Positions 11,457 through 15,975 of a DNA stretch of 64,000 nucleotides are shown here, piece after piece. The stretch is from Cyanobacteriota bacterium (lineage in GTDB: Bacteria; Cyanobacteriota; Cyanobacteriia; CACIAM-69d): assembly GCA_022402445.1 (NCBI GenBank), contig JAKRSF010000004.1, forward strand, positions 648,120 through 712,119, in the 5' to 3' direction. Numbering within the stretch: position 1 is the stretch's first letter; each line of letters opens with the position of its first letter. A program made the position numbers and the translations under genes. The notes under the pieces are model-generated. The model made no database searches, was not told the origin of the DNA, and was given only the letters and a program-made list of their open reading frames with translations.

Positions 11457-12758
11457 ATGCCCGTCGAACTTCTCCAACAGGTGCGCGCGATCGATCCGGT
11501 CTCGCAACTGGATCAGGTCGTGGATGTGCTCCTCGAAGATGGCCTGATCCTGGCGATCAACCCCGACCCGTCGGCCCACCCCGAAGCGGTAACCCGCCAG
11601 GACTGCCAGGGGCTCATCCTCGGGCCGGGGCTGGTGGATCTCCATAGCCACTCGGGGGAACCGGGCTACGAGTCCCGCGAAACCCTCGAAACCCTGGCGG
11701 CGGCGGCGTTGGCCGGGGGGTTTACGCAAGTGGCGATTTTGCCGGACACCACCCCCCCGGCGGATACGGCGGCGGTGATCCACTGGCTGCGCGATCGCTG
11801 CGCCTGCCCCGTGGGTCCAGAATTTCACCTGTGGGGTGCCCTGACGCGCCCGACGGCGGATGGGGGCGAGATGATGGCGGATTTGGCGGATTTGGCGGCG
11901 GCGGGGGTGATTGGCTTCAGTAATGGCCGCCCGCTCAATAATTTGGTCCTGCTCGATCGCCTGTTGCGCTACGGCAGACCCCTCCAGTTGCCGACGATGC
12001 TCTGGGCGCGCGATCGCAATTTGGGGGCCGATGCCAGCGTCTATGACGGGGCCGAAGCCCTGCGGCTGGGCCTGGTGAGCAGTCCGATCGCGGCGGAATC
12101 GAGCGCCCTAGCCGCCGCCATTGAGTGCATCGCCGAGGTGAATGGGCCGGTGCATTTGATGCGCATTTCCACCGCGCGCGGGGTTGAATTGATCCGCATC
12201 GCCAAGCGGCGGGGCCTGCCCATCACCGCCAGCACCACCTGGATGCACCTGCTCTGCGACAGTCGCCACATTGACGGGCGGGTGCCGCTGCCCGGTAGCG
12301 ATCGCGCCGCGAGCCCCTACGATGCCAGCCTGCGCCTTGCGCCGCCCCTGGGGAATGCCGTCGATCGCCGCGCCCTCCTCGATGGGTTGCGTGATGGCAC
12401 CCTCGACGCGATCGCCATTGACCACACCCCCCACACCTACGAAGAAAAAAACGTCGCCTTCGGAGCCGCCCCCCCCGGAGCCGCCGGGTTTGAATTTGCC
12501 CTGCCCCTGCTCTGGCACTGCCTGGTGGAAACGGGGGAATTGACGGCCCTGCAACTGTGGCAATACCTCAGCGCTGCCCCGGCCCGCTGCCTCGGACGCG
12601 AGCCCGCCGCGATCGCCGTGGGCCAGCCGTCAGAATTGGTGCTCTTTGACCCGAACCGCCCCTGGACCGTCGAAGCGAGTGCCCTCAAGTCGCGATCGGC
12701 CAACACCCCCTGGCTGGGCTGCACCCTCCGGGGCCAGGTCATGAACGTGTGGCGCTAG
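11457..12758 (+). CDS. Dihydroorotase-like protein, probably inactive
   Basis: A 433-aa member of the type I dihydroorotase family of amidohydrolases; dihydroorotase closes carbamoyl aspartate in pyrimidine synthesis. The first metal motif is DLHSHSGEPGYE: both His are kept but the substrate-binding Arg of HxHxRxPG is Gly. The metal Asp expected in a FTDDG-like stretch reads FSNGR. The DHCED-type His is absent (TMLWARD). The His of HVST reads RIST (HLMRISTA). The last Asp (DHTPHTYEEK) is kept. Three of six expected ligands are therefore missing by my comparison. Such pseudo-enzymes are known as structural partners of aspartate carbamoyltransferase (PyrC' in Pseudomonas). The apparently intact pyrC lies 1.8 kb downstream. 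Confidence 0.8.
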   Translation: MPVELLQQVRAIDPVSQLDQVVDVLLEDGLILAINPDPSAHPEAVTRQDCQGLILGPGLVDLHSHSGEPGYESRETLETLAAAALAGGFTQVAILPDTTPPADTAAVIHWLRDRCACPVGPEFHLWGALTRPTADGGEMMADLADLAAAGVIGFSNGRPLNNLVLLDRLLRYGRPLQLPTMLWARDRNLGADASVYDGAEALRLGLVSSPIAAESSALAAAIECIAEVNGPVHLMRISTARGVELIRIAKRRGLPITASTTWMHLLCDSRHIDGRVPLPGSDRAASPYDASLRLAPPLGNAVDRRALLDGLRDGTLDAIAIDHTPHTYEEKNVAFGAAPPGAAGFEFALPLLWHCLVETGELTALQLWQYLSAAPARCLGREPAAIAVGQPSELVLFDPNRPWTVEASALKSRSANTPWLGCTLRGQVMNVWR

Positions 12759-12788
12759 GCACCATCGTCAATTCTGTTCTGTCATTGT

Positions 12789-12835
12789 GGGGGTTGGGTC
12801 TCCCAAACCGAACCCGACCGATCACCACAACCCCC
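12789..12835. terminator. Possible bidirectional terminator
   Basis: Between the convergent dihydroorotase-like gene and lepB, GGGGGTTG (12789-12796) pairs with CAACCCCC (12828-12835). A smaller internal hairpin TTGGG-TCT-CCCAA lies at 12794-12806 and overlaps the left arm, so the two are alternatives. There is no long T-tract on either side. The position between convergent genes is the main argument. Confidence 0.25.
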
Positions 12836-12928
12836 TTCAAGTTTTGGCCTATCAGGGATCGTGGGGGCTGGGCGGGAAGACCCTGCCCCTGCGGATGATC
12901 GGTTGAAAAACGAGAAAATATTGACGTT

Positions 12929-13639
12929 CTATTCCTCCGCGATCGCGGCCTCCGTCGGCCCATCCAGCGTTCCCAGGCGATCGAGGGGCCAGAACCGCCA
13001 CACCGCCCGCCCGATGATGCGATCGCGCGGCACCACCCCCCAGCAGCGGCTATCGTAACTGCGGTTGCGGTTGTCCCCCAGCACCAGGTAGCTATCCGGC
13101 GGCACCGTCACCGGCCCCTCCAGGAACGCATCGGCCCTCGGGCGGCACACATTGATGCCCGTCCCCTGGCGATTATTCTCCAGCGGCGGCACAAAGCGCC
13201 CCTGCAACCTCGGATCCCCCGTATCCAGCACCGTCATCGGAGCCACGTAGGCTTCATCCAGGGCGCTGCCATTGACATACACCCGCCCCTCGCGCAGCTC
13301 CACGCGATCGCCCGGTAGGCCAATGGTCCGCTTGATCATCGCGTCCTTAAAACTCTCCGCCTTGAGGGCATCCGTCGGCGAAAAGACAATGATGTCCCCC
13401 CGGGCAGGCCCCTCGCCAAAGCGATAGCTCAGCTTCTCGACAATGAGGCGATCGTTGATCTGTAGCGCGGGCACCATCGACTCGGAGGGGATATACCGCG
13501 CCTCCGCGATCGACGTGCGAATCCCCAGGGCCAGCACCACGCTCAGGCCGATGGTTTTGACCGCCTCAACCCAGGCATTTTCTTCCTCTTGGGGCGGCTC
13601 AGCGGCGGATTTGACGGATTTTGCGGGATTGTCGGTCAC
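12929..13639 (-). CDS. lepB: Signal peptidase I (active copy)
   Basis: Leader peptidase that cleaves Sec and Tat signal peptides on the outer face of the membrane. It starts with a GTG (MTDNPAKSVKSAAEPP). An N-terminal membrane helix spans about residues 27-45. Box B YIPSESMVPAL carries the catalytic Ser 54, box D MIKRTIGLPGDRV carries the general-base Lys 103, and box E reads YLVLGDNRNRSYDSR. The length of 236 aa is normal for cyanobacterial LepB. It lies 71 bp downstream of a second signal-peptidase-like gene on the same strand, so the two are probably co-transcribed. An upstream extension of the frame overlaps that gene and is not used. Confidence 0.92.
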   Translation of the reverse strand: MTDNPAKSVKSAAEPPQEEENAWVEAVKTIGLSVVLALGIRTSIAEARYIPSESMVPALQINDRLIVEKLSYRFGEGPARGDIIVFSPTDALKAESFKDAMIKRTIGLPGDRVELREGRVYVNGSALDEAYVAPMTVLDTGDPRLQGRFVPPLENNRQGTGINVCRPRADAFLEGPVTVPPDSYLVLGDNRNRSYDSRCWGVVPRDRIIGRAVWRFWPLDRLGTLDGPTEAAIAEE

Positions 13640-13710
13640 GGTGAGGGGGCGGAAAAACCATAAATCTGCTTTGAGTGTAATCGAAACCCCTAGGGCTCGG
13701 CGCGATCGCC

Positions 13711-14364
13711 CTAGGGCCGGAAGGTTGTGGTTCCCGGCAAGAATTCTGGCAGGGTGGCTGTTTGCGTTCCCGCGATCGCTGGCCCCAGATGCGACACCGG
13801 CCCCAGGCGCTCTAGGGGGAAAAACCGCCACACCACCCGGCCAATGATGCTGTCGTGGGGCAGATAGCCCCAGGTGACGCTATCGAAGCTGTTGTTGCGG
13901 TTGTCCCCCAGCACCAGGTATTGACCGGGCGGCACCACCAGGGGAGCCATGGTGTAGTTGGGCTGGTGATCGAGATAGGGTTCCCCGATGGGTTTGCCGT
14001 TGTGAAAAACCTTGCCGTCGCGCACTTCGACGCGATCGCCCGGAATGCCGATGGTGCGGCCAATGAAGGCACCCTTGAGGTCCGGGCGCAGGTTGCGGGC
14101 ATTGACCGGGGGCTGAAAGGCGATCACGTCCCCCTGACGCGGGCTGGTGAAGAGGTAGCTAATTTTTTCGACAATGACCCGATCGTCCTCCACCAGGGTG
14201 GGCTCCATGATCGGTGAATTGACCCGGTAGGATTCCACAAAAAACGCCCGCAGCAGGCCAAAGAGGATGAGGGCCATCCCGGCGGTGGTGCCCCATTCCC
14301 ACCAGGGGAAGGGCAGGTCGGCGGGGACGGTTTGCTCTGCTCGGCGGGGGACGCGATCGGACAC
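13711..14364 (-). CDS. Signal peptidase I-like protein lacking catalytic Ser and Lys
   Basis: A 217-aa paralogue with the fold of signal peptidase I: an N-terminal helix (GMALILFGLLRAFFV), then YRVNSPIMEPTLVEDDRVIV, GAFIGRTIGIPGDRVEV and QYLVLGDNRNNSFDS. At the position of the catalytic Ser (SM) there is Ile 52, and at the position of the general-base Lys (KR) there is Gly 102. I checked both codons (ATC and GGC) on the minus strand. Everything else in the boxes is well kept, which argues against simple decay. It starts with GTG and precedes the active lepB. Staphylococcus aureus has a comparable arrangement (inactive SpsA next to active SpsB). It may bind signal peptides or modulate the active enzyme; this is inference. 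Confidence 0.85.
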   Translation of the reverse strand: MSDRVPRRAEQTVPADLPFPWWEWGTTAGMALILFGLLRAFFVESYRVNSPIMEPTLVEDDRVIVEKISYLFTSPRQGDVIAFQPPVNARNLRPDLKGAFIGRTIGIPGDRVEVRDGKVFHNGKPIGEPYLDHQPNYTMAPLVVPPGQYLVLGDNRNNSFDSVTWGYLPHDSIIGRVVWRFFPLERLGPVSHLGPAIAGTQTATLPEFLPGTTTFRP

Positions 14365-14598
14365 GGTGGCGGTGGGGCGCGGTGACGCGCGGCGAGGGGG
14401 ACTGTGGGGCGATCGCGGGACGCTCGCCTAAGCCTCGATCCATTCTACCGGTCGCTTGGATTCTCGCCGGTAATCGCGGGGCCGGTTATTTTCCCGAGGG
14501 CAAGGGTGACCGGTGGTAGGCTGGCAAATAGCCCCCGATGGCCGCCCCCTTGCTCTACCTCTTCGTTTCTAAGGCCGTGATCTGCGGCCCCTAGTCCT

Positions 14599-15975
14599 AT
14601 GGTTGTTTCCCCTTCGTCCGCGATCGCGGATCTCCCAGATCTCCTGATTCGCCAAGCCCGCATCTGCCACCCCGACGATCGCCTCGCCGTCGGAGATGTG
14701 CTGGTGCAGGGGGGCGTCATCACGGCGGTGGAATCGCATATTGACCGCGATCGCCTCGGGGACGGGGGCCGCGAAATTGATGGCACCGGCCTGACCCTGC
14801 TGCCGGGGGCGATCGATCCCCAGGTGCATTTCCGCGAGCCTGGTTTGGAATATAAGGAAGACCTCCAAACCGCCTCCTACGCCTGCGCCCAGGGGGGCAT
14901 CACCAGCTTCCTGGAAATGCCCAACACCAAACCCCTCACGGTCACCCAGGGGGATATGACGGCGAAATTGGCCCTGGCGGCCTCGAAATGCGTCGTTAAC
15001 TACGGCTTCTTCATCGGCGCGACCTCGGAATGCCTGCCGGACCTGCTGACGACCACCCCCACCTGCGGCATCAAGATTTTTATGGGGTCTATGAAGGGGC
15101 CGCTGCTGGTGGATGAGGAGCCGGTGCTCGATCGCCTCTTCGCCATGGGCCAAACGCCGGACAGTGGCCCCGGTCGCCTGATCGCCGTCCATGCGGAAAA
15201 CCAGGAGCGCATCCAGGAACGGCGCAAGGAGTTTGCGGGCATCAGCGATCCAGCGATCCACTCGGTGATCCAGGACAACCAAGCGGCCCTGGAGGCGACC
15301 CAACTGGCCCTCAAGCTCTCGAAGAAGTACCACCGGCGGCTGCACATTCTGCACATGTCCACGGCGGAGGAGGCGGAACTGATGCGCCGCGACAAGCCCG
15401 CCTGGGTGACCTGTGAGGTGACGCCCCAGCATTTGCTGCTCAATACGGATGCCTACGCCAAGATTGGCACCCTGGCCCAGATGAATCCGCCCCTGCGATC
15501 GCCCCATGACAACGAGGTGCTGTGGCAGGCGCTGCTGGATGGGGTGATTGATTTCATCGCCACGGACCATGCCCCCCACACCCTCGAAGAGAAGGCGAAA
15601 CCCTATCCCGAGAGCCCGTCGGGGATGCCGGGGGTGGAAACGTCGCTGCCCCTGATGCTGACCCAGGCGATCGCGGGGCGCTGCACGGTGCAGCAGGTGG
15701 TGCGCTGGATGTCGGCCAATGTGGCGAAATTCTTTGGGATTCCGCGCAAGGGGGCGATCGCGCCGGGGTTTGATGGGGATTTGGTGCTGGTGGATCTGGA
15801 CACCTATCGCCCGGTCAGCCGCGATCGCCTGCTAAGTAAATGCGGCTGGAGTCCGTTCGAGGGCTGGGAACTGACGGGGTGGCCGGTGGTGACGATCGTT
15901 GGCGGCCAGGTGGTCTACGAAAATGGCCGGGTGAATGGGCAGGTGCGCGGACGGCCCCTATCTTTTGAACCCTAA
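14599..15975 (+). CDS. pyrC: Dihydroorotase
   Basis: Catalyses reversible ring closure of N-carbamoyl-L-aspartate to dihydroorotate, the third step of UMP synthesis. It has 458 aa. Visible active-site motifs are DPQVHFREPGLEYKED, IKIFMGSMKG (position of the carboxylated lysine), LIAVHAEN, LHILHMST, VTPQHLL and ATDHAPHTLEEK. The first motif has Gln where most dihydroorotases have the first metal His. I recall this QVHFREPG form as typical of one dihydroorotase subgroup, so I still expect activity. It is divergent from the signal-peptidase-like gene with 234 bp between them. The window also has pyrFE and a degenerate pyrC-like gene. Confidence 0.9.
   Translation: MVVSPSSAIADLPDLLIRQARICHPDDRLAVGDVLVQGGVITAVESHIDRDRLGDGGREIDGTGLTLLPGAIDPQVHFREPGLEYKEDLQTASYACAQGGITSFLEMPNTKPLTVTQGDMTAKLALAASKCVVNYGFFIGATSECLPDLLTTTPTCGIKIFMGSMKGPLLVDEEPVLDRLFAMGQTPDSGPGRLIAVHAENQERIQERRKEFAGISDPAIHSVIQDNQAALEATQLALKLSKKYHRRLHILHMSTAEEAELMRRDKPAWVTCEVTPQHLLLNTDAYAKIGTLAQMNPPLRSPHDNEVLWQALLDGVIDFIATDHAPHTLEEKAKPYPESPSGMPGVETSLPLMLTQAIAGRCTVQQVVRWMSANVAKFFGIPRKGAIAPGFDGDLVLVDLDTYRPVSRDRLLSKCGWSPFEGWELTGWPVVTIVGGQVVYENGRVNGQVRGRPLSFEP

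What the first reader, a model, noticed from the sequence alone, without database searches (positions are those of the whole stretch)
13711..14364. Catalytically dead signal peptidase I upstream of the active one
Box B has Ile in place of Ser and box D has Gly in place of Lys, while the remaining boxes are well kept. The gene sits 71 bp upstream of an intact lepB. The layout parallels SpsA/SpsB of Staphylococcus. A retained fold without catalysis suggests a signal-peptide-binding or regulatory role.
Basis: partly seen in the sequence, partly recalled or inferred. Interest (0 to 1): 0.6.

Follow-up and report, generated by a model that had tools for sequence, protein, structure and literature searches.

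The report
Conserved inactive signal peptidase beside lepB
Next to its normal signal peptidase gene this cyanobacterium carries a second copy whose two catalytic residues are gone; its relatives keep such a copy under selection and other cyanobacteria have lost the catalytic serine independently in another form, so it is probably a working non-enzyme rather than a dying gene.

Summary
Confirmed. On the minus strand at 13711-14364 lies a 217-aa signal peptidase I homologue with Ile for the nucleophile Ser and Gly for the base Lys, ending 71 bp before an intact lepB. It is not recent decay: all 6 held genomes of this cyanobacterial family carry one such copy, with differing replacements (Ile/Gly; Ala/Leu in two; Thr/Asn in three) and a shared Pro just before the lost Ser (0 of 67 active homologues). 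It precedes lepB in 4 of 6 genomes and lies downstream of yidC-jag-yceD in 2 of 6. Its S26 core is under purifying selection (dN/dS 0.07-0.27). No Ser is invariant in the clade, so no common replacement dyad. The predicted fold matches active E. coli enzyme and inactive SipA equally well. Unexpectedly, a second kind occurs elsewhere in cyanobacteria: long S26 proteins with a multi-helix N-terminal domain, where 9 of 14 of one subtype lack the Ser, 7 of these keeping the Lys. Best reading: a membrane-anchored, non-catalytic protein that binds exported or membrane peptides near LepB (inferred). The kind is known (SpsA, SipA); I found no report of it in cyanobacteria.

The parts
13711..14364 (-). 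Non-catalytic type I signal peptidase homologue, 217 aa (GTG start): one N-terminal helix (21-41) and the S26 domain; Ile52 at the Ser position, Gly102 at the Lys position, Pro51 before Ile52
14209..14211 (-). codon ATC (Ile52) at the position of the nucleophile Ser (box B, N-S-P-I-M)
14059..14061 (-). codon GGC (Gly102) at the position of the general-base Lys (box D, F-I-G-R)
13640..13710 (.). 71-bp gap between the inactive gene and lepB
12929..13639 (-). Intact lepB (236 aa; Ser and Lys present; Cys165 and Cys199)
14599..15975 (+). dihydroorotase (pyrC), divergent; next to lepB in many other cyanobacteria
11457..12758 (+). second dihydroorotase-family gene, convergent with lepB; also at the lepB locus of other cyanobacteria

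Best explanation
This is a signal-peptidase pseudoenzyme. A signal peptidase paralogue lost both catalytic residues, probably once, in the ancestor of this cyanobacterial family, and has been kept since as a membrane-anchored protein with the peptidase fold (shown by sequence, selection and model). Most likely it uses the remaining shallow hydrophobic groove to hold signal peptides or membrane anchors at the Sec/YidC exit near active LepB. There it would present substrates, or shield segments that must not be cut, without cleaving them. The groove-binding and LepB-partner steps are inferred, and the groove step is weaker for genus g3, which has also lost box E.
For: Both dyad residues are lost in 6 of 6 family genomes, against Ser and Lys in 67 of 67 active rows of the tree set. 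The six form one group with the three trait columns masked (88/46; 90/89). Core dN/dS is 0.07 (bootstrap 0.03-0.12) for G001-G003, 0.10 for G002-G004 and 0.27 for G002-G005. The fold is predicted intact: pLDDT 82, Z 18.2 to E. coli SPase and 17.9 to SipA; the most decayed version has Z 15.1 to SipA. Groove positions M53, L57, F83, I/V101 and a hydrophobic residue 48 are kept in 6 of 6. The gene precedes lepB in 4 of 6 genomes and lies downstream of yidC-jag-yceD in 2 of 6. Other cyanobacterial S26 proteins have also lost the Ser while their S26 domain stays under purifying selection, so a non-cutting use of this fold recurs in the phylum. Precedents: SipA keeps its cleft without the dyad and is essential for pilus assembly (PMC4049620, passages and section 9); yeast Spc1, a non-catalytic subunit, protects membrane segments from cleavage (PMC8277137, abstract).
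Against: There is no expression, interaction or phenotype data. Selection is weaker than on lepB in each of the three pairs compared over the whole gene (0.24 vs 0.029, 0.10 vs 0.016, 0.24 vs 0.17), and for the window's own genus no close pair exists. In g3 box E is degraded and the oxyanion Ser is Leu, so groove function may not be general. In g2 the gene is not beside lepB. In SipA a mutation meant to block the cleft did not stop pilus assembly (PMC4049620), so the cleft may not matter even there. Both models were built on alignments full of active enzymes, which favours the canonical fold.
Confidence: 0.5

Rival explanations
1. Structural partner: the protein dimerises with LepB and stabilises or positions it, and its groove plays no part (recalled analogy: mitochondrial Imp1/Imp2).
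For: Precedes lepB in 4 of 6 genomes; the fold is predicted intact even where box E is degraded; replacements at the dyad differ between genera, as if the site itself no longer matters.
Against: In g2 the gene is unlinked from lepB. Three Acaryochloris genomes have the same Cys-type LepB; in the loci fetched, the only S26 copy without the Ser was a long form in one of them. No interaction test was possible.
Confidence: 0.25
2. Dedicated assembly factor for one exported protein or surface structure, as SipA is for a pilus, not a general LepB helper.
For: SipA has the same type of change (Asp/Gly for Ser/Lys) and matches the models as well as active enzymes do. The family-only distribution of this clade fits a lineage-specific client.
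Against: No client gene is linked: neighbours are lepB, pyrC, yidC-jag-yceD, a sulfate permease or an FKBP.
Confidence: 0.13
3. Recent gene decay (a pseudogene on its way out).
For: The exact Ile/Gly pair is unique to this genome; evolution is faster than that of lepB.
Against: Open frame and loss of both residues in 6 of 6 genomes of three genera; core dN/dS well below 1, while the upstream ORF part of the same g2 gene is near neutral (0.79), an internal control.
Confidence: 0.06
4. Still a protease, with a relocated Ser or Thr and another base.
For: g3 has Thr at the Ser position; the window protein keeps Ser50 (the oxyanion Ser position) and has Lys97 five residues before Gly102.
Against: No Ser is invariant in the six; the one invariant Lys (67) and Thr56 are shared with active enzymes; g3 has also lost the box E Ser and Asp. 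Distances were not measured.
Confidence: 0.04

Closest known systems
SpsA of Staphylococcus (paralogue of the active SpsB)
   Same: Signal peptidase homologue lacking the two catalytic residues in a genus with an active enzyme; inactive and dispensable (PMC12445088, passages)
   Different: Different phylum; sequence kinship not tested; here the copy is unlinked in one genus and carries a Pro signature. The side-by-side spsA-spsB layout is from the finding and recall.
SipA of Streptococcus pyogenes (PDB 4n31, 4k8w)
   Same: Ser and Lys replaced (Asp, Gly), fold and peptide cleft kept, no peptidase activity; best or tied fold match
   Different: Encoded in a pilus cluster with known clients; about 24% identity in the fold alignment; residues at the dead site differ
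LepB1/LepB2 of cyanobacteria (Synechocystis sll0716, slr1377; PMC3210150, passages)
   Same: Same family and domain; the pyrC-lepB locus is shared with other cyanobacteria
   Different: Short active-type versions examined keep Ser and Lys (38 of 38; 67 of 67, which includes 6 long ones)
Spc1 (eukaryotic signal peptidase complex)
   Same: Non-catalytic membrane partner that tunes which segments are cut (PMC8277137, abstract)
   Different: Not an S26-fold protein as far as recalled; analogy of role only

Membership tests
Type I signal peptidase fold (Pfam PF10502, S26) | sequence profile and fold | tested here: met
   6 of 6 members match PF10502; Z 18.2 and 14.7 to E. coli SPase
Active type I signal peptidase | nucleophile Ser in box B | tested here: not met
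   Ile, Ala or Thr in 6 of 6
Active type I signal peptidase | general-base Lys in box D | tested here: not met
   Gly, Leu or Asn in 6 of 6
SpsA-type inactive paralogue | both catalytic residues missing, beside an active paralogue | tested here: met
   window and 3 g3 genomes; not beside lepB in 2 g2 genomes
SpsA-type inactive paralogue | descent from the same ancestor as SpsA | not tested
   no SpsA sequence was fetched
SipA pilus assembly factor | fold and peptide cleft without the dyad | tested here: met
   Z 17.9 to 4n31; hydrophobic groove residues kept at the positions checked; cleft volume not computed
SipA pilus assembly factor | location in a pilus cluster and a role in pilus assembly | not tested
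   the neighbours named by profile include no sortase, but no sortase search was run

The most novel reading that the evidence does not exclude
Cyanobacteria have repeatedly turned signal peptidases into non-cutting receptors for signal peptides and membrane anchors: the short clade of this family, working beside LepB as a second, non-catalytic subunit, and the long multi-helix forms that lost only the Ser but kept the Lys and box E. Together they would be a bacterial counterpart, of independent origin, to the accessory subunits of the eukaryotic signal peptidase complex.
Probability: 0.25. Interest if true: 0.75.

Novelty: new variant of a known kind. Interest (0 to 1): 0.5.

Why it matters
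It shows conserved signal-peptidase pseudoenzymes in cyanobacteria, which export into two membrane systems, and it suggests that losing the catalytic Ser while keeping the fold is recurrent there. What such proteins do is open for SpsA too; a free-living, non-pathogenic group with several independent cases makes the question testable. It also warns that NCBIfam TIGR02227 would label this protein an active signal peptidase I.

Tried and rejected
Recent decay: rejected by conservation and dN/dS.

'Only this family has inactive S26 proteins': my reading, later corrected. A check of the Acaryochloris loci turned up a long form with Gly for Ser, and and 92 more. The Pro-signature clade itself still appears only in this family, as far as that profile reaches.

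Cys pair of lepB as a co-evolved partner feature: the family's lepB carries Cys...DSRCWG in 6 of 6, but three Acaryochloris rows and one Symploca row share it, and no Acaryochloris short copy fetched lacks the Ser. Dropped.

Origin: in the best trees the six lie nearer the second (LepB2-like) lepB of the genome than the adjacent lepB, but descent from the adjacent lepB is not rejected (AU p 0.219). Branches are long; unresolved.

yidC link as ancestral: the yceD loci of G000, G002, G004 and G005 have no S26 gene within about 1.5 kb, so that location is specific to g2.

Long forms: 11 loci share no conserved neighbour. The window family shows no match to the long N-terminal domain, but an empty answer without a positive control proves little.

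Literature: searches listed no paper on an inactive cyanobacterial signal peptidase, judged from the listings; most subscription papers are not held. One search found nothing.

Full report
Observation. The ORF at 13711-14364 lies on the minus strand and encodes 217 residues from a GTG. It is a clear S26 signal peptidase by Pfam (148.7 bits, cut-off 22.9) and NCBIfam (144.4 bits, cut-off 47). In box B the nucleophile Ser is Ile (NSPIM), and in box D the Lys is Gly (FIGRTIG). Boxes C and E are intact. lepB (12929-13639, minus) follows after 71 bp with Ser and Lys in place. The genome holds two further S26 genes with Ser and Lys: a second lepB (C7:136822) and a short protein matching the nickel-SOD maturation protease model (C6).

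Relatives. All six held genomes of the window's family (three genera) carry one copy lacking both residues. They are Ile/Gly in the window, Thr/Asn in G002, G004 and G005 (genus g3), and Ala/Leu in G001 and G003 (g2). With a profile of the six, the six score 325-414 bits and the best of the other 332 class genomes scores 215; a more divergent copy elsewhere is not excluded. A first residue census of all fetched loci (175 loci and the window) gave 169 distinct rows: 145 Ser/Lys, 18 split or partial pieces with a gap at one or both columns, and the 6 inactive ones. These loci were chosen by similarity, not at random.

Signature and descent. In a 73-row set, the residue before the lost Ser is Pro in 6 of 6 inactive and 0 of 67 active rows. 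In a 39-row alignment the Pro three before the Ser is lost in 6 of 6 (Asn, Gly, Thr) and present in 33 of 33 active rows. With the three trait columns masked the six remain one group: bootstrap 88 and SH-aLRT 46, bootstrap not quite settled; 90 and 89 in a second set. One origin is likely but not proven. The parent copy is unresolved: the best trees place the six nearer the second lepB, while descent from the adjacent lepB is not rejected (AU p 0.219).

Locus. A pyrC-lepB-second dihydroorotase neighbourhood recurs in cyanobacteria. In the window and in G005 the inactive gene sits between pyrC and lepB. In G002 and G004 it also precedes lepB, with an FKBP gene upstream and no pyrC within the 19 kb read. 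The gap to lepB is 71 bp in the window and, by the conserved start, 329, 318 and 216 bp in G002, G004 and G005 (coordinates). Tandem lepB pairs occur in six other loci of cyanobacteria (G007, G031, G015, G027, L106, L114), and none of these copies is among the exceptions of the census. In g2 the inactive gene is elsewhere, 0.7-1.1 kb downstream of yidC-jag-yceD on the same strand.

Selection. Whole-gene dN/dS for the inactive copies is 0.24 (G001-G003), 0.10 (G002-G004) and 0.24 (G002-G005); lepB in the same pairs gives 0.029, 0.016 and 0.17. In the S26 core alone the inactive copies give 0.07 (bootstrap 0.03-0.12), 0.10 and 0.27. The upstream 101 codons of the g2 ORF give 0.79, near neutral, so the true start is probably further in; this serves as an internal control. 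Comparisons between genera approach or reach saturation at silent sites, so the window's own copy has no good pairwise test.

Structure. The AlphaFold2 model of the window protein (39-row alignment; pLDDT 82.2, pTM 0.73) matches E. coli SPase 1t7d (Z 18.2, rmsd 1.8, 137 aligned) and inactive SipA 4n31 (Z 17.9, rmsd 3.4, 137 aligned), which are tied. The G002 protein, whose box E is degraded, gives pLDDT 75.0 and best Z 15.1 to SipA (rmsd 2.1, 125 aligned). Both alignments contain many active enzymes. E. coli residue equivalents used are recalled. Groove positions 53, 57, 83 and 101 stay hydrophobic in all six; the Ser278/Asp280 equivalents are kept in the window and g2 but lost in g3.

A second, wider case. 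Checking other genomes, I met an Acaryochloris protein with about 200 N-terminal residues of membrane helices fused to an S26 domain whose Ser is Gly. A class search and further fetching gave more such long forms. In a set of 14 long forms with an RYIPS-like box B, 9 lack the Ser (Ala 5, Gly 3, Thr 1); 7 of the 9 keep the Lys and 2 have Gln. Of the 5 with Ser, one has Ala at the oxyanion position and one has Ala at the box E Ser. A second long subtype keeps Ser and Lys in 13 of 13. On the best tree the Ser/non-Ser state needs 7 changes, one of them for the window's clade. The long S26 domains are under purifying selection where silent sites are not saturated, for example 0.15 (L207-L210, Gly vs Ala) and 0.12 (L199-L203). 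These rows are the best-scoring matches to one inactive query, so 9 of 14 is not a class-wide frequency. The second census over the loci then held (227 loci and the window) gave 194 distinct ORFs: 178 Ser/Lys, the 6, one truncated copy of one of the 6, one fragment, and 8 long forms; L228 was added later.

Mechanism. Shown: loss of the dyad across a clade, purifying selection, and a predicted intact fold with an N-terminal helix. Inferred: peptide binding in the groove and work beside LepB or the Sec/YidC exit. SipA offers the nearest tested precedent: no activity, a conserved cleft and an essential assembly role, but a mutation meant to block its cleft had no effect (PMC4049620; passages, section 9). 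SpsA is described as inactive and dispensable (PMC12445088, passages). In Synechocystis the two signal peptidases divide photosynthetic and export work (PMC3210150, passages); which of these the window's lepB corresponds to was not tested.

Verdict. The kind of thing is known. Its conservation in a cyanobacterial family, and the recurrent Ser loss in long forms, appear unreported in the searches made.

Noticed in passing
L186:922-2088 (+), also L199, L203, L207, L210, L211, L218, L222, L228: Long S26 proteins with a multi-helix N-terminal domain, widespread in cyanobacteria; 9 of 14 of one subtype lack the nucleophile Ser, most keeping the Lys. Possibly a larger finding than the one given.
   Followed up: partly
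12929-13639 (-): The family's lepB has a Cys pair (NVC ... DSRCWG) beside box E in 6 of 6 genomes, also in three Acaryochloris rows and one Symploca row: a possible disulfide or redox switch near the active site.
   Followed up: partly
11457-15975: Two different dihydroorotase-family genes flank the signal peptidase locus; this neighbourhood recurs in cyanobacteria.
   Followed up: partly
L036, L037, L038 (G002, G004, G005 inactive copies): These copies have also lost the box E Ser/Asp, a second step of loss of the catalytic machinery with the fold predicted intact.
   Followed up: yes
L058:10655-11269 (-): An FKBP-type peptidyl-prolyl isomerase gene directly precedes the inactive gene and lepB in G002 and G004.
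   Followed up: no
L098:4394-10672: In another cyanobacterium an active lepB lies 3.7 kb downstream of yidC-yceD.
   Followed up: no
13711-14364 (-): NCBIfam TIGR02227 passes this inactive protein far above its cut-off, so pipelines would name it signal peptidase I.
   Followed up: no
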